Shown piece after piece: positions 38,718-47,929 of a DNA stretch of 47,929 nucleotides (position 1 is the stretch's first letter; each line of letters starts with the position of its first letter). The notes below the pieces were generated by a model. It did no database searches and was not told where the DNA came from. It saw nothing but the letters and a program-made list of their open reading frames with translations. The stretch covers positions 16,829-64,757 of the forward strand of contig PMKE01000121.1 of assembly GCA_003158585.1 (NCBI GenBank), in the 5' to 3' direction. The position numbers were made by a program, and so were the translations under genes. The DNA is from Alphaproteobacteria bacterium. GTDB lineage: Bacteria > Pseudomonadota > Alphaproteobacteria > Micropepsales > Micropepsaceae.

Positions 38718-38873
38718 CTAGATGCGTCCCATGAGAAGCAAGACGACGACGATGATAACGATCACGCCCAGCCCGCCGCTTGGGCCGTAACCCCAGTTCG
38801 TGCTGTGCCGCCATGTCGGCAACGCGCCGATCAAAAACAGCACCAGGACGACTAAGAGAATAGTACCTAGCAT
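38718..38873 (-). CDS. DUF3309 small membrane protein
   Basis: The 51-residue protein has two hydrophobic segments around ALPTWRHSTNWGYGPSGGLG, the hallmark of DUF3309. I chose ATG 38873 (MLGTILLVVLVLFLIG), with GGGAG about 8 bp upstream. The function is unknown in the family. A stress-cluster motif copy lies 178 bp upstream. Confidence 0.85.
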   Translation of the reverse strand: MLGTILLVVLVLFLIGALPTWRHSTNWGYGPSGGLGVIVIIVVVLLLMGRI

Positions 38874-39051
38874 TGCTTGTACTCCCAATTGGGGCGGCGC
38901 GAGAGGCCGCGCTTGCATCCGTCGGCTTGATACTTGTCGATCCGGGTGCGTCCGAACGCGCGTGAAACGAGAGGCGGATCTCCCCGCCTCCGCTTCATCC
39001 GTGTCCCGGATGATATTCGAGACTAGCTGCGGGATAGTAGTGGAGACAGCC

Positions 39052-39065
39052 TCGGAAACTACTCA
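39052..39065 (-). promoter_or_regulatory. Stress-cluster motif copy 1, upstream of the DUF3309 gene
   Basis: Reads TGAGTAGTTTCCGA leftward, 178 bp before the DUF3309 start. Confidence 0.6.
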
Positions 39066-39095
39066 GCGGTGCCCGCAGGATAGCTTCGGGTAACG

Positions 39096-39362
39096 TTAAA
39101 CGCGCCGGACCAGCCGTATGAGAAGCAGCAGTACGACTGCGCCGATCGCCGCGCTGGCAATCACGGGCACAAGTCCGACGCCGAGATGAACGCCCAATTT
39201 GGGCAACAACCAGCCGCCAAAGAACGCGCCGACAATGCCGACGGCGATATCGCCAAGCAGGCCGAAGCCGCCGCCCCTGACAATCATGCCGGCGAGCCAG
39301 CCCGCAACCGCGCCGACCAAAGCCCAAATGAGTAGAGTTTGGTAGGTAATATCATAGATCAT
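39096..39362 (-). CDS. GlsB/YeaQ/YmgE-type small membrane protein
   Basis: The 88-residue protein has three hydrophobic segments and the Gly-rich pattern AGWLAGMIVRGGGFGLLGDIAVGIVGAFFGG, split as VAGWLAGMIVRGGG and GDIAVGIVGAFFGGWL, typical of the transglycosylase-associated family. Such proteins are often stress-induced inner-membrane proteins of unclear role. AGGAG precedes the ATG by 7 bp. Confidence 0.9.
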   Translation of the reverse strand: MIYDITYQTLLIWALVGAVAGWLAGMIVRGGGFGLLGDIAVGIVGAFFGGWLLPKLGVHLGVGLVPVIASAAIGAVVLLLLIRLVRRV

Positions 39363-39390
39363 TGGTGGTTGCTCCTTCTGTCGAGAAACT

Positions 39391-39419
39391 GCCGTACGGA
39401 TCGCGATGATCCGTACGGC
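39391..39419 (-). terminator. Perfect hairpin downstream of the glycine-zipper gene
   Basis: GCCGTACGGATC (39391-39402) and GATCCGTACGGC (39408-39419) form a 12-bp perfect stem with a 5-nt loop, 43 bp after the leftward gene's stop. Leftward it is followed by AGTTTCT, a weak T-tract. Confidence 0.65.
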
Positions 39420-39461
39420 AATCGCATGCGCCAGCTCGTCTTGAGCGAGCGCGACTGTTGA

Positions 39462-40133
39462 TTAATCCGTGTACCAATTACCGTCGTCGTGACGGCAGGC
39501 CGTGCCGTGGCGGTTGTACGAGCGTCTATTGCTGTAGCCCGCTTCACTGAAATCGCGGCAAGTGTAGCCCGCGCGTGAAAATTCGCGTGTGGGGGTGAAG
39601 GTGCCGTAACTGCCGCCGTTCCCATTACGCCAGCTATAGCGATTGCCGACGCGGCCTTCGAACCCCTGGCTATAGGAACTCATGGCATAGCGACGATCGT
39701 TGCAGTTCATGTTGCCTGAGATCGCATTGCCTGCGAGACCGCCGAGGATGACGCCGCCGACGACGGCGCCGCCATTACCGTGGCTTGCCGCGCTGCCGAT
39801 CAATCCGCCCGCGATGGCGCCCAGGACGGTGCCAGCGGCGGTATTGTTGTTGCAATCGCTGCCGTAATAATACGCGCCGCGTTGATAACGGTTCGCGTGA
39901 CGGTACGGGTCCGAACGATACCGGTCGTTGCGGTCGCGACGGGCATAACCATCGTCGTAACCGTAGTTGTAGCCGTTTCCATACGTGGGCTGGTTCTGAT
40001 CGTTGCGGTCGTACTGACCGGAGTTATATTGACCGTCATTCTGCTGATTGCGATCGTTAGGGTCGGCGTTTGCCGCGCCGGCGCCGAGTACGATTGCGGC
40101 GGTCGCGAGCAACATGCTCATCCTTTTTAACAT
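39462..40133 (-). CDS. Secreted glycine-zipper (17 kDa antigen-like) protein
   Basis: The 223-residue protein has a signal peptide ending near ANA (residue 23). A long N/Q/Y/R/D-rich region covers residues 25-90. A glycine zipper follows (AAGTVLGAIAGGLIGSA and GAVVGGVILGGLAGNAI), then a Tyr/Arg-rich C-terminal part with YTCRDFSEAGY and GTACRHDDGNWY, like the end of rickettsial 17 kDa-type surface antigens. No lipobox Cys is at the cleavage site. It is probably an outer-envelope protein. Motif copy 2 lies 119 bp upstream. Confidence 0.82.
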   Translation of the reverse strand: MLKRMSMLLATAAIVLGAGAANADPNDRNQQNDGQYNSGQYDRNDQNQPTYGNGYNYGYDDGYARRDRNDRYRSDPYRHANRYQRGAYYYGSDCNNNTAAGTVLGAIAGGLIGSAASHGNGGAVVGGVILGGLAGNAISGNMNCNDRRYAMSSYSQGFEGRVGNRYSWRNGNGGSYGTFTPTREFSRAGYTCRDFSEAGYSNRRSYNRHGTACRHDDGNWYTD

Positions 40134-40252
40134 CGAATTTTCCTCGATTGATGCCCGCGCGAGGTTCCGAAGGGAAATAGCGCCGGATAGGGGAAGCGCC
40201 TAAAGCGCTCACTCGATAAGATTGTAGTTAGCGGCGCGGGGCGCGGGCAGTC

Positions 40253-40266
40253 TCGGAAACTACTCA
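40253..40266 (-). promoter_or_regulatory. Stress-cluster motif copy 2, upstream of the glycine-zipper gene
   Basis: Reads TGAGTAGTTTCCGA leftward, 119 bp before the start codon at 40133. Confidence 0.65.
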
Positions 40267-40343
40267 CTTCGATCAGAGGCCGGCCGCCGGCTTGATTCTA
40301 AGCGGCGGTGCAGCCCTTGCTATCGCTGCGATAACAAACGGCT

Positions 40344-40535
40344 TCAGCAGTCGGGACGCTTCAGCGTGACGTAAACTGCCACCGGACGGTCGAAATAGCG
40401 TTTCGAAATCTCACTCAAGGTCGACGCGATATGTTCAAGTGTCACGTTGCCTGAAAGGCGGAACGACGCCTCCCTGTCGGGAAGCACGACTTGTATACGA
40501 GTGTCTCCCAAACGCTCGATGGAATTGCATTGCAT
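40344..40535 (-). CDS. Small hypothetical protein (63 residues) with a decayed tandem paralogue
   Basis: A soluble 63-residue protein with an alternating strand/helix pattern: RIQVVLPDREASFRLSGNVT, then EHIASTLSEISKRYFD, then PVAVYVTLKRPDC. A strong GGAGGGG sits 3 bp before the ATG. The frameshifted copy at 40673-40872 aligns without gaps over the first 32 residues, which supports this as a real gene. The function is unknown. Motif copy 3 lies 109 bp upstream. Confidence 0.68.
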   Translation of the reverse strand: MQCNSIERLGDTRIQVVLPDREASFRLSGNVTLEHIASTLSEISKRYFDRPVAVYVTLKRPDC

Positions 40536-40644
40536 GGGCCCCTCCGTGATTCGTTCGCGCCCGGGCGGTTAATGACCGGCACCCGACGCGTAGCCTCAAA
40601 ACTACCCCGCCAGCGTATATGCGCCCCGGGGCGCGGGGGGAGCT

Positions 40645-40658
40645 TCGGAATCTACTCA
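40645..40658 (-). promoter_or_regulatory. Stress-cluster motif copy 3, upstream of the 63-residue gene
   Basis: Reads TGAGTAGATTCCGA leftward. A 32-bp window around it (40631-40662) matches the window of copy 5 at 30 positions. Confidence 0.68.
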
Positions 40659-40672
40659 GATCATCAGAGAAA

Positions 40673-40872
40673 TCATGAGAGTGAGGCTTCGGGCCGCCTT
40701 ACCGTAACGTCGATTGCGACTTGATTGCCGTAACTCCGTCGTGAATTCTCGGCGAGCGTCCGCGCAATTTCCCCTACGTCACATTGGAGGCAAGGCTGAA
40801 CGACACCACCTTGTTGCCGAACAAAAATCTAAACTGGCTGTGCCTCACTTGATCGATCCGGAATGCCCGCAT
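40673..40872 (-). pseudogene. Frameshifted paralogue of the 63-residue gene
   Basis: From ATG 40872 the frame reads 32 codons ending SFSLASNVT, then hits TAG at 40774-40776. In the next frame the sequence continues GEIARTLAENSRR and VAIDVTVRRPEASLS to a stop at 40673. The intact neighbour has SFRLSGNVT, EHIASTLSEISKR and VAVYVTLKRPDC in the same order. The first 32 residues match in length exactly, so a single-base deletion near 40774-40776 explains the break. A degraded motif copy (4) lies 61 bp upstream. Confidence 0.78.
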
Positions 40873-40933
40873 CTGAAGCTCCGCGATAGGTCTGCCTAGC
40901 AGGCTACCGGCACGTACTGCTGCCGCGATAGGT

Positions 40934-40947
40934 TCGGAATCTACCTG
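40934..40947 (-). promoter_or_regulatory. Stress-cluster motif copy 4 (degenerate), upstream of the pseudogene
   Basis: Reads CAGGTAGATTCCGA leftward, two bases off the common form, 61 bp before the pseudogene start. Confidence 0.5.
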
Positions 40948-40986
40948 CCGGTTATCCGCGGTGCGGCGTTCGCAGGGGGGCTGCGT

Positions 40987-43900
40987 TCAACGGGGGGGAT
41001 TCGACGCAGCAGCAATCGCCAGCCGTGCCAGCGCCGGAAGGGACTTGGAGCCTGTCTTCTGCATGATCGCCGCGCGATGATTCTCGACCGTGCGTTGGCT
41101 GATGCCGAGGTCCGCGGCAATATTCTTGCTGGGATGGCCGGCGAGGACAAGTTCCATGATTCGCTGCTGTTGCGGCGTGAGCTTGGCAATACTATCCGCA
41201 GCGGCGGCTTGCCAGGCGGACAGTTTGGTCTCGTCTTTGGACTGTTCGAGTGCGCGATTGACGCTGGCGAGCAACTCCTTGCTGCTGATCGGCTTCTCGA
41301 GGAAATCCGAAGCGCCCGCCTTCATGGCCTGCACCGCGATCGGCACGTCGCTGTTCCCCGTGATCATGATGGAAGGCAGTTGATGACCGGCCGCATGCAG
41401 CCGTCGCAGCAATTCGAGCCCGCTCATGCCGGGAAGGTAGGCATCGATCAAAAGGCAGCCTTCCGAGCCAGGACGATAGTCAGCGAGGAACGCCTCACAC
41501 GTCGAATAATCCCGCACAGTTCGACCCTCAGCTTCGAACGTGCTGCGAATCCCTTCGCGAATTTGATCGTCGTCGTCGACGATGAAGATGACGGGGGCGC
41601 TCGGCCGAACGGACACCTCGGCCGGGTGCGGATCGCGTGTCTGCAGTGCCGGCCGTGATTTCGGCAGGAGCCGTTTGATGACTTGCGTCAGCTCTTTCGG
41701 CTTCATCGGCTTGTTGAGCTGAATACAGTTCTGATTTGCGATGCGGCGCAAGGTCTTCGTCGTGATATCGCCGGTCAGAACGATGACCGGGATGTCGTGG
41801 TGTAACTTCTCCCGCACCTTTGCAGTGACTTCCAGTCCGTCCATGCCGTTCGGCAGATTGTAGTCCGCAATGATGAGATCGGGCTTGATCGCCCCTCGCG
41901 CGATTACAGCCAGCGCCGCGACACCGTCGGATGCCGCTGCCACGCTATATCCCTCGCTCTTGAGCAGGAGTTCGAGCAGCTCGCGCACTTCCGGATCGTC
42001 TTCGACAACCAGAATGGCGCCCGCGCCGCGTTCGTCATCGACGATCGCGGCATCCTTGCCGACATGGTCTTTCTTGGGTTCCGCCGCCGTTTCGCCCGAT
42101 GCGAGTTTTACCTCTATAGTGAATACCGAGCCTTTGCCCATGCGCGAGCGGACGCGCACCCGATGGCCGAGCATGGTTCCCAAACGCTGCACGATCGACA
42201 GGCCGAGGCCAAGACCGCGGCCGCGTTCGCGCGCTGCATTGTCGAGCTGATGGTATTCCTCGAAAATCGCGGAAAGTTCCTCGGACGGGATGCCTACGCC
42301 AGTATCGCAGACATTGATGCTGAGCATTCCGTTGCCACGGCGGCAGCCGAGCAGCACCTTGCCGTGCTCGGTATATTTCAGCGCATTCGAAAGCAGGTTG
42401 CGGATCATCTGCTCGAGCAGATGCGGATCGCTGTGGATGGATTGGCTGCACTTCACCACCCGCAGGTCTAGCCCCTGGGATTGGGCATGAAAGGCGAACT
42501 CGTCCTTCAGCCGCTCCAGCAGATCGTCGACCGGAAAATCGACCATCTCGGTGCGGACGGTGCCGGCCTCGATCTGGTTCAAATCGAGCAGCGTGTTCAG
42601 CATGCCCGAAATGGAGCCCAAGGTCTGGTCCAGCCGTACGACCAGCTTCTGCGCCCCCTCGCCCTCGACCATCTTCGCCAACAGGCCTTGAAGCAGCGCA
42701 AGCGTTTGCAGAGGTTGGCGGAGATCGTGGCTCGCGGCAGCGAGGAAACGCGATTTTGCGATATTGGCGAGCTCCGCGTTCTGCTTGGCCTCTTCCAGCG
42801 CCCTTGCCGTGCGCTTGCGCTCCGTGACGTCGGTGAAGGTGATAACCACGCCCTCCACCCTATTGTCGTGGGCGCGATAGGGCAGTATGCGGCGGTTGAA
42901 CCAGACGCCGCCCAACGCTTCGACCTCGCGCTCGCTCGGCGTGAGGCTGTGCAGCACGGCACGGGCGTCGGCAGAAAGAGAGCCGTCTGCGGACAGCGAG
43001 CGGAGGTCCGCCAGCGGCCGTCCGATATCCGTCGGAATGATGTTGAAGAGTAGTTTGGTGGCCGGCGTGAAGAACCGGATGTTGAGGTCCTGGTCGAGAA
43101 AAAGCGTCGCGACATTCGTGCTGTAGAGGATGTTTTGCAGATCGTCGGATGCTTCGCGCTGCCGATCCAGGGTTTCCTGAAGCTGGGTGTTGAGGGCGGT
43201 AAGCTCCTCGTTGAGCGACTGCAATTCCTCCTTGGAGGTCAGCAGCTCCTCGTTCGTGGACTGGAATTCCTCGTTGACGGACAACGCTTCTTCGTTGATT
43301 GCCTTCTGTTCTTCGCTGGATATCTCAAGATTGCGGATGGCACCCCTGAGTTCCGATCTGGTGGCTTCGAGTTCATGCTCGAGATCGGCGACCCTCGCAG
43401 TGTCCGCTGCGGAGATCGGGCCGTTCTCCTTCTGCTCCCGCTTCGGCTCGTCGACAAAGCAAATCAGGAAAAGCTCCTCGCCTTCGCAGTGAGCCGGTTG
43501 GACGGTGATAGCGAACGAATAGGATTTACCGTCGTGGCTGGTCTGTCCGCCGGCAACGGTAACGTGTGTTTTCTCCTGGCCGACCTGCTTGATCGCCGAG
43601 CGCAGCTTGGTGCGCATGCCCTCGCTCACCATCGCGAGCAGATCGTAAGTGGGTTGCCCGGCCGGCACGCGCAGATAACGCTCCGTCGGTCCCAGGGAAT
43701 AAAGGCATTCGTGCTTGCGGTTGATCAGGACGGCTGCCGGTGCATAGGCATCCATCACCAAACGCTGACAAAGATCGGCGAACGCGACTTGGCGCGAGGC
43801 TGCTTTGTCTTGTCCGGGAACCGTGAAGGCTCGAACACTCTCGCCGGCAGTTTTCAAAATCTCGAGACCCTCCGACCGGGTGCTGCCGGTGCGCCGATAA

Positions 43901-45405
43901 AGACGCTCCGCCTTCGAGCAGTCCTCAAAACGACCGTCGTCGGTGTTTATCGTCTCCGCGTTGCCGAGAAGAAGCAGCCCGCCCTCGCTCAGCGCAAAAC
44001 GGAAGACCGAAACGGCTTTTGCCTGTGCCTCGGGCCGCAAATAGATCAGGAGGTTGCGGCATGAAACCATGTCGAGGCGCGAGAAGGGCGGATCGACGAG
44101 CAAGTCCTGCACCGTAAAGACCACCGCCGCGCGCAACTCCGGCGACACTCTGTAACCGTGCTTCTCCCTCTTGAAAAAGCGGGCAAGCCGCTCGGGCGAC
44201 ACGTCCGCCTCGATCGTTGCCGGATAAAGGCCTTCCCGGGCGCTCTCTACCGCCTCCTTATCGACATCGGATGCGAAAATCTGCAGCGCGGTGCTTTGTG
44301 CCGCCGCCGCCATTTGCTCGCGGAAGAGAATGGCAAAGGAATAGGCCTCTTCGCCCGTGCTGCATCCGGCAACCCAGATGCGGATTGGGCGATCGGGCGG
44401 CTGCCTGCGGATGATGTCCGGAACGATCTTCTCCGCCAGAAGGGCGAACACCTTCGGGTCGCGGAAAAAGCTGGTGACATTGATGAGCAGGTCTCTGGAA
44501 AGAAGTTCGAGTTCGGTTTTGTTGATCCGCAGGAGCTTGAGATACCGATCCATGTTGCCGGGCGCGATGGCGGCCAGTCCCATGCGCCGTTCGATGCGGC
44601 GCTCAAGCGTCCCGTGCTTGTAGAGTCTGAAATCGTGGGCGGTCCCCTTACGCAGGAGTTCAACGATTTCGGGCAACCGATCCTGCCCGCCATCCTCCGC
44701 CGGCAGCCCGCCCGGCGTTCCGGCGAGGGACGTTCCGCGCGCGAACTTGGCGATCGCCTCGGGCATCTTCGCCACGGGAAGCACCAGGTCCACTGCGCCC
44801 GTTGCCATCGCATTGCGCGGCATGCCGTCGAAACCGGCTTCGTTGGGATCCTGGACGATGACGAGCCCGCCTTTTTCCTTCACCATTTTCAATCCAAGGC
44901 TGCCGTCGGTGCCCGTTCCCGAAAGGACCACGCAGGCGGAACGTGCGCCGCACTCGTTCGCCAGCGAGGTCAGCAGGAAGTCAAACGGCAGACGGGAACC
45001 GTGGCGCGCAAGCGGGTGCGAAAGATGGAGGGCCCCGCCGGCGACGGAGAGATAGGTTCCGGGCGGGATGACATAGAGGTGATCGCGCTCGATCGGTATT
45101 CCCTCCGCTGCCTGGCACACGGTCAACGGCGTGTGGTCTTTCAACAGATCCACCATCATGCTCTCGTGACTTGGATCGAGATGCTGGATCAGGACGAAGG
45201 CAATGCCGGTATCGGCGGGAATCTCGCCCACGAGCTTCCGGCAGGCTTCAAGGCCGCCTGCCGAAGCGCCGATGCCGACGACAAGGATGTCCTTAGTCGC
45301 GCGCGGGGTGACTTCGGGCGCGCGTACGCGAGCGCGCGAAGGCACGGGACGCCTAATCTGTCGCACCCGGCTCTTCGAGGGCCGGTGCGGACGGCTCTTG
45401 GGCAT
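40987..45405 (-). CDS. CheB-CheR-PAS-histidine kinase-REC-REC-HTH fusion protein
   Basis: The 1472-residue soluble protein combines a whole signalling chain. A CheB-type methylesterase domain comes first (38-225; S48 in GASAGG, H75, D167), followed by a CheR-type methyltransferase (about 245-510; GCSTGEEAYS at 348-357). Next are a long coiled coil (660-755) and a PAS domain (756-860). The kinase has H893 in ASHDLRQP and an ATPase domain (N1007, DTGVGIP). Receiver 1 has D1181 and receiver 2 has D1321. A LuxR/FixJ-type HTH closes it (1408-1470, GISQRTVENHRAAIMQK). CheB-CheR-kinase fusions are known; the added FixJ-like receiver-HTH makes sensor and transcription factor one chain. It sits amid the TGAGTAG motif genes. 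Confidence 0.92.
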   Translation of the reverse strand: MPKSRPHRPSKSRVRQIRRPVPSRARVRAPEVTPRATKDILVVGIGASAGGLEACRKLVGEIPADTGIAFVLIQHLDPSHESMMVDLLKDHTPLTVCQAAEGIPIERDHLYVIPPGTYLSVAGGALHLSHPLARHGSRLPFDFLLTSLANECGARSACVVLSGTGTDGSLGLKMVKEKGGLVIVQDPNEAGFDGMPRNAMATGAVDLVLPVAKMPEAIAKFARGTSLAGTPGGLPAEDGGQDRLPEIVELLRKGTAHDFRLYKHGTLERRIERRMGLAAIAPGNMDRYLKLLRINKTELELLSRDLLINVTSFFRDPKVFALLAEKIVPDIIRRQPPDRPIRIWVAGCSTGEEAYSFAILFREQMAAAAQSTALQIFASDVDKEAVESAREGLYPATIEADVSPERLARFFKREKHGYRVSPELRAAVVFTVQDLLVDPPFSRLDMVSCRNLLIYLRPEAQAKAVSVFRFALSEGGLLLLGNAETINTDDGRFEDCSKAERLYRRTGSTRSEGLEILKTAGESVRAFTVPGQDKAASRQVAFADLCQRLVMDAYAPAAVLINRKHECLYSLGPTERYLRVPAGQPTYDLLAMVSEGMRTKLRSAIKQVGQEKTHVTVAGGQTSHDGKSYSFAITVQPAHCEGEELFLICFVDEPKREQKENGPISAADTARVADLEHELEATRSELRGAIRNLEISSEEQKAINEEALSVNEEFQSTNEELLTSKEELQSLNEELTALNTQLQETLDRQREASDDLQNILYSTNVATLFLDQDLNIRFFTPATKLLFNIIPTDIGRPLADLRSLSADGSLSADARAVLHSLTPSEREVEALGGVWFNRRILPYRAHDNRVEGVVITFTDVTERKRTARALEEAKQNAELANIAKSRFLAAASHDLRQPLQTLALLQGLLAKMVEGEGAQKLVVRLDQTLGSISGMLNTLLDLNQIEAGTVRTEMVDFPVDDLLERLKDEFAFHAQSQGLDLRVVKCSQSIHSDPHLLEQMIRNLLSNALKYTEHGKVLLGCRRGNGMLSINVCDTGVGIPSEELSAIFEEYHQLDNAARERGRGLGLGLSIVQRLGTMLGHRVRVRSRMGKGSVFTIEVKLASGETAAEPKKDHVGKDAAIVDDERGAGAILVVEDDPEVRELLELLLKSEGYSVAAASDGVAALAVIARGAIKPDLIIADYNLPNGMDGLEVTAKVREKLHHDIPVIVLTGDITTKTLRRIANQNCIQLNKPMKPKELTQVIKRLLPKSRPALQTRDPHPAEVSVRPSAPVIFIVDDDDQIREGIRSTFEAEGRTVRDYSTCEAFLADYRPGSEGCLLIDAYLPGMSGLELLRRLHAAGHQLPSIMITGNSDVPIAVQAMKAGASDFLEKPISSKELLASVNRALEQSKDETKLSAWQAAAADSIAKLTPQQQRIMELVLAGHPSKNIAADLGISQRTVENHRAAIMQKTGSKSLPALARLAIAAASNPPR

Positions 45406-45496
45406 TCAGCGATGTTCTCTAAGCGTTGATTCCAAACGGGAAGTACAGATGGATAATATCATAATCGGCCTGTCGCGAAACGCGAATGCAGGGATC

Positions 45497-45510
45497 TGAG
45501 TAGATTCCGA
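45497..45510 (+). promoter_or_regulatory. Stress-cluster motif copy 5, upstream of the Dps-like gene
   Basis: Reads TGAGTAGATTCCGA rightward, 115 bp before the Dps-like start and 91 bp from the kinase-fusion start on the other strand, so it could also affect the kinase gene. Confidence 0.68.
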
Positions 45511-45625
45511 ACCTCCCCCCGGGCGATCTTCCAATTCTATCATCAAGCTCAGCAAACTGCGGTTTTAGGCCCGTTCGGCGCGACACCGGACGCCGGGGGC
45601 ATTGTTCAGTACTGGAGATCGAGCC

Positions 45626-46168
45626 TTGCACTCGACAGACACCACGCTCCCCCAGACCGTCCGGGAACAGTCCGCCGAGCTACTCAACAAGTATTTGGCT
45701 GCTGCGATTGATTTGCAGGGCCAGGTCAAACAGGCCCGCTGGAACGCGAAGGGGCCCGATTCCAACTCCATCCGCATATTGTTGGAGAAGGTGTCGGACG
45801 AAGTCCAAAGCTGCTCCGAGCTAATCGCAGAACGCACCCGCGGGCTCGGTGCCTTGGCGCAGGGTACCGTTCAATTCGCAGCAAAACGCTCCTTTCTCCT
45901 GCCTTATCCCCTCGATATCGCCGACGCACGGGAACACGTCTTTGCAGTGATCGCGGCGCTGGCCGCGTTCGGCCAATGCGCTATCGAGGCCGCGGCGGCT
46001 GCGGCGGCCTTCGGCGACGCGAACACCGCCGATCTCCTCAGGGACATCTCTAACCGCATCGACCAGCAGATCTGGCTGGCCCATTTCCACGTGGTTCCGA
46101 AAAACCGGCCTGCACGCCTTGACGAGGTTCCGAGCCAAAGCTGGCAGGCCGCAAAAAGCTCTGTTTGA
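45626..46168 (+). CDS. Dps-like ferritin-fold protein lacking ferroxidase ligands
   Basis: The 180-residue four-helix protein aligns with Dps throughout: ELLNKYLAAAIDLQGQVKQA, WNAKG, LIAERTRGLG, YPLDI and DTADLL-type segments. Against E. coli Dps, the iron ligands H51, H63, D67 and D78 are R38, R50, E54 and E65 here; only E82 is kept as E69. Iron oxidation is therefore doubtful, while DNA or protein binding may remain. I chose TTG 45626 with GGAG 8 bp upstream; TTG 45602 is the alternative. Confidence 0.82.
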   Translation: MHSTDTTLPQTVREQSAELLNKYLAAAIDLQGQVKQARWNAKGPDSNSIRILLEKVSDEVQSCSELIAERTRGLGALAQGTVQFAAKRSFLLPYPLDIADAREHVFAVIAALAAFGQCAIEAAAAAAAFGDANTADLLRDISNRIDQQIWLAHFHVVPKNRPARLDEVPSQSWQAAKSSV

Positions 46169-46213
46169 AACACACAAACCGTCCGGCCGGTCGCGCCGCC
46201 TAAGGAGAGTTTC

Positions 46214-46540
46214 GTGAGTCAAAGCAACATTCTCAAAGTCGGAATGACCGTCGGACTGCTGAATTTTCTGGCCTTCATGATGTCGATGTGGGTGCTGGGA
46301 GGCAGCGCCGTTCTCGGCCTGGCTCTTGACGGCCAGTATTTTCTCGATGCCGGCCGACACCTGGTGCAGGTCAGCGGCGCGGTGTTTTTCTTCAGCAAAT
46401 GGCAAGCGTACAGCTTGATAGCAACATTGCCTTTGGGTCTGGCATGCGCGTGGCGGTGGTCGGAACTCCCGATAAACTCTCGATCGGAAGTCACAGCAGC
46501 AGTGGACGCCGGCGACGCTACAACTGCGCGCCTTGTCTAG
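46214..46540 (+). CDS. Small membrane protein, unknown
   Basis: The 108-residue protein has two or three hydrophobic segments (VGLLNFLAFMMSMWVLGGSA and LIATLPLGLACAW) and a hydrophilic tail. The start is GTG with AAGGAG about 7 bp upstream. It follows the Dps-like gene by 45 bp and is probably on the same transcript. The family is not recognised. Confidence 0.65.
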   Translation: MSQSNILKVGMTVGLLNFLAFMMSMWVLGGSAVLGLALDGQYFLDAGRHLVQVSGAVFFFSKWQAYSLIATLPLGLACAWRWSELPINSRSEVTAAVDAGDATTARLV

Positions 46541-46711
46541 ATTGCAGACACTATAATTCAATGCGACCGTCGTTCAATGAATAATGGCCAATACATCGTT
46601 AAAATCAGCTAAGTAAACGTACTACACAGTAGAAACGCACCGAATTGCAAGTAAAACAATAAAATTACAGTGCTTTTCTTTGCAGGTATTAACACATATT
46701 AGTCAATGGCT

Positions 46712-46725
46712 TGAGTAGTTTCCGA
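46712..46725 (+). promoter_or_regulatory. Stress-cluster motif copy 6, upstream of the SciP-like gene
   Basis: Reads TGAGTAGTTTCCGA rightward, 63 bp before the start codon. A TATTAT at 46736-46741 could be a -10. The 150 bp before it are AT-rich and hold no gene. Confidence 0.65.
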
Positions 46726-46788
46726 TCCTATCCAATATTATTTTGGCGCGTATCGTCCTCTTCGTCTCATGGAGACGTGGAGCGGACC

Positions 46789-47139
46789 ATGCGAACCAAT
46801 CAACAGGAACTGGGAACCGAACGCACGGATAAGGCCGAATCCGGCATCCGCCAGCATTCGGGTGCCAATGAAAATACCGAACCGTGTCATGTCAAAATGC
46901 CGGACATCTTCACGGCTCCTTCTCAACCCAAGCGTTGGGTGGCTCACAGGAAGGCGGAGATTGTGACCGCGGTGCGCGGCGGATATCTCAGTCTCAGCGA
47001 AGCCTGCCTACGCTATGCGCTGTCGATAGAGGAATATCTCTCCTGGGAGCGTGAAATCGACATTTCCGGTTTGCAGGGGTTGCGCATGAACAGAACACAG
47101 CAGCGCCGCCGGACCGGACTAAGTTCTGCGGACCGCTGA
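46789..47139 (+). CDS. SciP-like (DUF1153) DNA-binding protein
   Basis: The 116-residue protein has a C-terminal helix-turn-helix, KRWVAHRKAEIVTAVRGG followed by LSLSEACLRYALSIEEYLSW, strongly like SciP/DUF1153. In Caulobacter, SciP restrains CtrA-dependent transcription. Here an extra ~45-residue polar N-terminal segment precedes the domain, and the gene sits among stress-type genes, so it may be a paralogue with another job. I chose ATG 46789, with GGAG 6 bp upstream. Confidence 0.83.
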   Translation: MRTNQQELGTERTDKAESGIRQHSGANENTEPCHVKMPDIFTAPSQPKRWVAHRKAEIVTAVRGGYLSLSEACLRYALSIEEYLSWEREIDISGLQGLRMNRTQQRRRTGLSSADR

Positions 47140-47200: not shown

Positions 47201-47503
47201 ATGTCCGAGTTCGCACTGCCTCTCACGCCGCGAGATCAAGAATGGATCGAATATCGCGAGCGGCTCGCCCGGGCGGCCCGCGAACTCCATTTCTCCGCCA
47301 CCTCGGGCGACGCCGCAAACGGAGCGACGCTTCTCGTGATCGCGGGAAACCTCGCTGGGCTAGCCTTGAGCATTCCCATGCCCCCCGCCCCCGTTCAAGA
47401 CACGACCGGCGGCCCGGTCAGCGCGTACACCCTTTTTGCCACCCAGATCCTCAATCGCGCCATGCAAACGGACGGTGACGACAAGTTCGGCGAGGGTCAT
47501 TGA
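47201..47503 (+). CDS. Hypothetical protein, 100 residues
   Basis: A soluble protein beginning MSEFALPLTPRDQEWIEYRERL, followed by a helical middle (GATLLVIAGNLAGLAL) and a Pro/Gly-rich end. GGTGGGG lies about 7 bp upstream. Its stop overlaps a possible TTG start of the next gene, suggesting coupling. No family is recognised. Confidence 0.6.
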   Translation: MSEFALPLTPRDQEWIEYRERLARAARELHFSATSGDAANGATLLVIAGNLAGLALSIPMPPAPVQDTTGGPVSAYTLFATQILNRAMQTDGDDKFGEGH

Positions 47504-47559
47504 AGGCTGCTCTGGATGGACGTGCCGCCTCGCCGCAGCAGCTTGAGATTGAGGGAACC

Positions 47560-47929
47560 GTGCATTCCAAGACACCCACTTCCGCCGTTCTTGCGCACGA
47601 TCCCGGCCAAGTCCGCCGTGCCAAAATCCGCGTCGACGAGCTCATCAAGAAATCCGGCGCTTTGCAGCAGGCCATTCTCAACAGCTCCAATTTCTCGGTC
47701 ATAGCCACCGACGAGAAGGGCATCGTCCAACTCTTCAACGCCGGCGCGGAACTCATGCTGGGTTACGCGGCCTCCGACGTCGTCGACAAGATCACGCCGG
47801 CCGATATCTCGGACCCGCATGAGTTGAGTGCACGCGCCACCGCGCTGAGCAAGGACCAAGCAACCCCGATCGCACCTGGCTTTGAAGCGCTGGTCTTCAA
47901 GGCCGCGCGCGGAATCGAGGACATCTACG
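47560..47929 (+). CDS. PAS-domain protein, probable sensor kinase, 3' truncated by the window
   Basis: The 123 codons run off the window end. A linker helix (VRRAKIRVDELIKKSGALQQ) leads into a PAS domain: AILNSSNFSVIATDEKGIVQ, FNAGAELMLGYAASDVV, with ITPADISDPHEL typical of PAS. The frame is open back to TTG 47500, which overlaps the preceding stop; GTG 47560 with GAGGG 4 bp upstream is given here, and either is possible. A histidine kinase or diguanylate cyclase output is likely but not visible. Confidence 0.72.
   Translation, partial: MHSKTPTSAVLAHDPGQVRRAKIRVDELIKKSGALQQAILNSSNFSVIATDEKGIVQLFNAGAELMLGYAASDVVDKITPADISDPHELSARATALSKDQATPIAPGFEALVFKAARGIEDIY

What the first reader, a model, noticed from the sequence alone, without database searches (positions are those of the whole stretch)
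39052..46725. Recurrent motif TGAGTAG(A/T)TTCCGA defines an unrecognised stress-type regulon
Five exact copies and one degenerate copy lie in under 8 kb. Each is upstream of a small gene (DUF3309, glycine-zipper, 63-residue protein and its dead copy, Dps-like, SciP-like) and is oriented toward it. Bases beyond the core are also shared (CT at +3/+4, then C-rich), and copies 3 and 5 match at 30 of 32 positions. It matches no sigma-factor or regulator site I know, including the EcfG -35/-10.
Basis: seen in the sequence. Interest (0 to 1): 0.8.

Follow-up and report, generated by a model that had tools for sequence, protein, structure and literature searches.

The report
FixJ-type box of a fused kinase
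A short DNA signal repeated before small stress-type genes is most likely the docking site of one giant sensor-kinase protein that carries its own DNA-binding tail, and this protein-plus-signal pair recurs patchily across many alphaproteobacteria as a stress-gene control circuit not described in the papers I could search.

Summary
The motif is real. The window has 5 exact copies plus one decayed copy. Its genome (3.13 Mb) has 21 exact copies and 5 with one mismatch. The full element is TGAGTAGWTTCCGA-N2-CT, then a sigma70-like -10 (TANNNT) 25-27 nt after the 14-mer in 123 of 188 sites, the layout of an activator-dependent promoter. The claim that it matches no known regulator site is wrong: it is a FixJ-type box (S. 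meliloti FixJ SELEX consensus GTAGTTTCCC). In 289 Alphaproteobacteria genomes exact copies track the CheB-CheR-PAS-HK-REC-REC-GerE fusion (window 40987-45405): 7/12 genomes with it, 3/277 without (p=3e-9). FixJ-like regulators and CheB-CheR homologues whose match stops before the GerE tail do not track it. Across 80 fusion loci there are 164 copies (71 exact) against 0 for a reversed control; 47 of 77 have one pointing away just upstream of the fusion gene. In one genome the GerE regulator is a separate gene with an identical recognition helix, near a box. Downstream genes are stress-type (Dps, CsbD, PRC, BON, DUF3309, trehalose phosphatase, ECF sigma). No binding or expression was tested.

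The parts
39052..39065 (-). box 1, upstream of DUF3309 gene
   Evidence: exact match; -10-like TAGTCT at 39020-39025
40253..40266 (-). box 2, upstream of 17kDa_Anti_2/glycine-zipper gene
   Evidence: exact match; TACAAT at 40221-40226
40645..40658 (-). box 3, upstream of 63-residue protein gene
   Evidence: exact match; TACGCT at 40612-40617
40934..40947 (-). box 4, decayed (CAGGTAGATTCCGA), upstream of broken paralogue
   Evidence: 3 mismatches; CT and TAGCCT at 40901-40906 kept
45497..45510 (+). box 5, upstream of Dps-like gene, divergent to the fusion gene
   Evidence: exact match; TATCAT at 45538-45543
46712..46725 (+). box 6, upstream of DUF1153/SciP-like gene
   Evidence: exact match; TATCGT at 46751-46756
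38718..38873 (-). DUF3309 small protein gene (target)
   Evidence: Pfam DUF3309 E=5.5e-23
39462..40133 (-). 17 kDa antigen-like/glycine-zipper protein gene (target)
   Evidence: Pfam 17kDa_Anti_2 E=5e-8
40344..40535 (-). 63-residue protein gene (target), no known family
   Evidence: ORF with RBS 123 nt after box 3
40675..40872 (-). frame-broken relative of the 63-residue protein gene
   Evidence: similar pieces in two frames, read by eye
40987..45405 (-). CheB-CheR-PAS-HisKA-HATPase-REC-REC-GerE fusion, proposed regulator
   Evidence: Pfam domains
41017..41184 (-). GerE DNA-binding domain of the fusion (aa 1408-1463)
   Evidence: Pfam GerE E=3.2e-14; closest solved match FixJ 1X3U
45626..46168 (+). 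Dps-like ferritin gene (target)
   Evidence: Pfam Ferritin; NCBIfam Dps 111.9 bits against cut-off 114
46790..47139 (+). DUF1153/SciP-like gene (target)
   Evidence: Pfam DUF1153 E=6.5e-21; NCBIfam SciP 78.7 bits against cut-off 100

Best explanation
The repeat is the operator of a dedicated regulon. The GerE (FixJ-type) DNA-binding domain at the C-terminus of the fused kinase at 40987-45405 binds, most likely as a phosphorylation-induced dimer, to TGAGTAGWTTCCGA-N2-CT (core GTA-N-WTTCCG-N3-CT). A TANNNT -10 element lies 25-27 nt beyond the 14-mer, so the box spans roughly -52 to -35 and takes the place of a good -35 hexamer. The regulator would therefore act as an activator touching sigma70 RNA polymerase. 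The signal is sensed by the CheB-CheR-PAS-kinase part of the same soluble protein and passed from His to the two receiver domains to the GerE tail, or in some species to a separate REC-GerE protein. Targets are envelope, DNA-protection and dormancy/stress genes. Shown: the box, its promoter geometry, its conservation, its co-occurrence with the fusion, and the gene classes. Inferred: binding, phosphotransfer, activation rather than repression, and the stress trigger.
For: Genome-wide enrichment: 21 exact copies in own genome, control 0. Promoter geometry: TANNNT at offset 25-27 in 123/188 sites, against a mean of 3.2 in other 3-nt windows. Co-occurrence in 289 class genomes: exact motif in 7/12 with the GerE-tailed fusion and 3/277 without (single copies, about the rate of the reversed control), Fisher p=2.9e-9; 0/11 for CheB-CheR homologues whose match stops before the GerE tail; three congeners lack both. 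34 genomes holding the fusion carry 142 exact copies against 1 for the control. 80 fusion loci: 71 exact and 93 one-mismatch copies, control 0 and 0; a divergent box within 600 bp of the fusion in 47/77 loci, same-direction in 1. The fusion tail is closest to FixJ by sequence, whose SELEX consensus GTAGTTTCCC fits the box. Only two proteins with a full GerE domain were found in the own genome; the other, FixJ-like, has relatives in 63 fusion-less genomes, none with an exact motif copy. G051 has a split version: a 1597-aa CheB-CheR ORF plus a separate regulator with an identical SQRTVENHRA helix, and a box just past the end of that ORF.
Against: No binding or expression data. Many fusion genomes have few exact copies and use variants, and G182 has none of the patterns tried. 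Relatedness of genomes was not modelled in the Fisher test. Some own-genome boxes (L004 first site, L013 minus strand, contig-edge sites) lack a convincing downstream gene. The activator position rests on -10 matches, not on mapped start sites.
Confidence: 0.82

Rival explanations
1. The box belongs to the ordinary FixJ-like response regulator of the genome (contig C53), and the fusion only lies nearby.
For: FixJ SELEX consensus fits the box; the C53 protein passes the NCBIfam FixJ cut-off (262 against 255 bits).
Against: FixJ-like proteins occur in 63 fusion-less genomes of the sample, including two congeners (G004, G140), with no exact copy in any; boxes sit next to the fusion in 47/77 loci.
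Confidence: 0.07
2. The 14-mer is a promoter element read directly by an alternative sigma factor (a -35 block).
For: Conserved block upstream of a -10-like element; targets resemble general stress genes; ECF sigma genes lie below some boxes.
Against: The distance from the CCGA end to the -10 is 25-27 nt, against 16 nt in the EcfG promoter GGAAC-N16-CGTT (PMC7083833); the -10 is sigma70-like; presence follows a GerE protein rather than a sigma factor.
Confidence: 0.04
3. The box is a repressor site: the fusion tail shuts these genes off until a signal arrives.
For: The box overlaps the expected -35 region.
Against: No recognisable -35 hexamer to be blocked, and a fixed distance to the -10, which is typical of activators.
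Confidence: 0.06

Closest known systems
FixJ (S. meliloti FixLJ system), NarL/FixJ response regulators
   Same: GerE DNA-binding domain closest to FixJ 1X3U by sequence; box matches the SELEX consensus GTAGTTTCCC
   Different: Regulator is fused to its own kinase and to CheB-CheR; its tail scores 232 bits against the FixJ equivalog cut-off of 255; up to about 20 stress-type boxes per genome instead of fixK and nifA
PhyR-NepR-EcfG general stress response of Alphaproteobacteria
   Same: Overlapping kind of targets (csbD, envelope genes; PMC7083833)
   Different: Different cis element (GGAAC-N16-CGTT) and different logic (anti-sigma partner switch); no NepR or PhyR_sigma2 hit in this 92.7% complete genome
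Hybrid histidine kinases of the NahK/ErcS type
   Same: Kinase plus receiver core scores 376 bits against cut-off 400 in NCBIfam NF041832
   Different: Adds N-terminal CheB-CheR, a second receiver and a DNA-binding output in the same chain

Membership tests
NarL/FixJ response regulator regulon (wide sense) | REC plus GerE output domain | tested here: met
   Pfam Response_reg (2 stretches) and GerE in the fusion; FixJ 1X3U is the best solved match
NarL/FixJ response regulator regulon (wide sense) | Binding site near promoters at fixed distance to -10 | tested here: met
   TANNNT at offset 25-27 in 123/188 sites
NarL/FixJ response regulator regulon (wide sense) | Direct phosphorylation-dependent DNA binding | not testable with these tools
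   needs EMSA, footprinting or ChIP
FixJ proper (equivalog) | NCBIfam NF006900 cut-off of 255 bits | tested here: not met
   232.4 bits for the fusion tail; the separate C53 regulator reaches 262
FixJ proper (equivalog) | Small regulon headed by fixK/nifA | tested here: inconclusive
   Sampled targets are mostly stress and envelope genes; only the 25 commonest families were listed, and a Crp-like gene lies below one own-genome box (L023)
EcfG general stress promoter | GGAAC-N16-CGTT | tested here: not met
   Profile of 188 sites shows neither element; consensus from PMC7083833

The most novel reading that the evidence does not exclude
Alphaproteobacteria have a second, patchily inherited general stress system: a single-chain phosphorelay transcription activator (CheB-CheR-PAS-HK-REC-REC-FixJ tail) with its own box, which in some lineages, such as the genome of this window, stands in for the PhyR-NepR-EcfG system.
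Probability: 0.35. Interest if true: 0.82.

Novelty: new variant of a known kind. Interest (0 to 1): 0.64.

Why it matters
It pairs a large family of fused sensor kinases, for which I found no study, with a readable DNA signal, so the regulon can be listed in any genome by a text search and the input signal can be sought with a simple reporter. It also suggests that stress control in alphaproteobacteria is not only by EcfG: genes such as csbD, dps-like and trehalose phosphatase appear wired to a different, FixJ-type switch in some lineages.

Tried and rejected
A paper search for the motif letters listed only unrelated (mostly medical and veterinary) papers, and searches for the fusion architecture showed no paper describing it. 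The box at 46120 was rejected (inside a gene, no CT). The plain FixJ and sigma-factor readings were rejected as binders (see rivals). A link between helix residue and box letters is only suggestive, because relatedness was not controlled. NepR absence is not a rule: 11 of 21 fusion genomes sampled have at least a weak NepR hit, so I do not claim general replacement of EcfG. Genes below boxes were called with a simple codon score and RBS heuristic and a few are surely wrong. Structure prediction was not run, since sequence already placed the tail.

Full report
WHAT IS THERE. The window carries five exact copies of TGAGTAGWTTCCGA (39052-, 40253-, 40645-, 45497+, 46712+) and one decayed copy (40934-). 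The window lies at the end of contig C137 of a 3.13 Mb, 92.7% complete genome. That genome has 21 exact copies and 5 with one mismatch; allowing two mismatches there are 38 hits against 9 for the reversed pattern. The exact reversed pattern occurs 0 times. Copies 3 and 5 agree at 26 of 32 positions, not 30.

FULL ELEMENT. I pooled 188 distinct sites (up to one mismatch) from the own genome and from 80 loci that hold relatives of the kinase fusion. The profile is T-G-A-G-T-A-G-W-T-T-C-C-G-A, two free positions, C-T, a weaker C-rich stretch, then a TANNNT hexamer. TANNNT starts 25-27 nt after the 14-mer in 123 of 188 sites, against a mean of 3.2 (maximum 13) in other 3-nt windows. The five exact boxes of the window each have one; so does the decayed copy. 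With the usual spacing from -10 to start site (inference), the block covers about -52 to -35: the position of an activator that overlaps the -35 region. There is no good -35 hexamer. The box has a partial inverted symmetry, GTAG...CT(A/G)C, as expected for a dimer (inference).

WHICH REGULATOR. But SELEX on S. meliloti FixJ gave GTAGTTTCCC and GTAMGTAG, and the fixK site is TAAGTAATTTCCCTTA (PMC4999443); the box has GTAGTTTCCG. In the own genome a GerE search found three places: a FixJ-like REC-GerE on C53, the fusion, and a weak partial hit whose 213-aa ORF looks like an ECF sigma factor. The fusion's tail is closest among solved structures to FixJ 1X3U (E=5e-13). Its recognition helix is SQRTVENHRA against SPRTVEVHRA in FixJ.

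CO-OCCURRENCE. Of 289 genomes drawn evenly from the class, 10 have an exact copy and 12 have a fusion homologue whose match reaches the GerE tail. Seven have both; three have one copy and no fusion, as the reversed control would give. Fisher p = 2.9e-9 (relatedness not modelled). Three controls agree. Eleven genomes with CheB-CheR homologues whose match stops before the GerE tail have no exact copy. Sixty-three genomes with a FixJ-like protein and no fusion have none. Three genomes of the same genus have neither fusion nor box. A looser pattern finds boxes in 10 of the 12 fusion genomes, and G015, one of the other two, has two exact copies; G182 has none. A longer pattern over the 289 genomes hits 8, six of them with the fusion. 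Among 34 genomes reached through fusion loci, 25 have exact copies, 142 in all against 1 for the control. Around 80 fusion genes there are 71 exact and 93 one-mismatch copies, control 0 and 0. In 47 of 77 loci one lies within 600 bp of the fusion and points away from it; in only one does a box point towards it. In genome G051, counted as a GerE-less homologue because its match stops early, a separate regulator with an identical helix lies beside the 1597-aa CheB-CheR ORF, and a box lies just past the end of that ORF. So the box goes with this GerE tail, whether fused or not. Fusions with a changed residue in VE(N)HRA have fewer TGA-type boxes (2 of 17 against 102 of 174); relatedness was not controlled.

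TARGETS. Genes were called below boxes by a simple score and scanned against Pfam. Recurrent families near the fusion: receiver domains (18), Dps/ferritin (12), LTXXQ (9), PRC-barrel (8), OmpA (7), DUF3309 (6), collagen-like (5), BON (4), Ysc84 (4), YflT (4), CsbD (3), DnaJ and trehalose phosphatase (2 each), ECF sigma. Elsewhere in the own and other genomes: CsbD (7), PRC (6), RcnB, type III polyketide synthase, receivers, ECF sigma, G6PDH, acetate kinase and others. csbD and many envelope genes are EcfG targets in Sphingopyxis (PMC7083833). The own genome gives no hit for NepR or PhyR_sigma2, while three congeners have NepR; but the genome is 7% incomplete, and other fusion genomes have NepR, so replacement of EcfG is a hypothesis only.

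MECHANISM. Most likely the CheB-CheR-PAS part senses a signal, the HisKA/HATPase core autophosphorylates, and phosphate passes through the receivers and frees the GerE tail to dimerise on the box and recruit sigma70 polymerase. The domains are shown; the flow is inferred. The frequent divergent receiver protein may tune it (inference).

NOVELTY. The class of regulator and of site is known (NarL/FixJ). The single-chain architecture with its own widespread box and a stress-type regulon was not found in the literature I could search, which lacks most subscription papers. I rate it a new variant of a known kind.

Noticed in passing
G298 (genome of L050, Caballeronia sp. dw_19) and L076 (Caballeronia sordidicola): A betaproteobacterial genus carries the fusion and clusters of the box (8 exact copies in G298, 4 sites near the fusion in L076), suggesting transfer of regulator and targets together.
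   Followed up: partly
L133 (G315:C14:4000-23900), L068, window 39052-46725: Boxes cluster in islands of five or more within about 8-20 kb in several genomes, as in the window.
   Followed up: partly
L004, L129, L162: A type III polyketide synthase-like gene lies below a box in three genomes; such enzymes make cyst or resorcinolic lipids in other bacteria (own knowledge), hinting at dormancy.
   Followed up: no
L133:17126-17776, L140:164-751, L040:7686-8207, L045:16090-16671: ECF sigma-like genes lie below boxes in several genomes, so the system may sit above an ECF cascade.
   Followed up: no
window 46790-47139 and L086:2680-2991: A DUF1153/SciP-like gene is below a box in the window and, by look, in one other genome: a possible link to CtrA cell-cycle control. 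The window protein is below the NCBIfam SciP cut-off.
   Followed up: partly
window 47503-47929: A PAS-type sensor-like gene starts here and is cut by the end of the contig.
   Followed up: no
L045, L062, L067: Fusion loci labelled Mycobacterium, Solirubrobacterales and Acidobacteria are probably mislabelled or contaminated assemblies.
   Followed up: no
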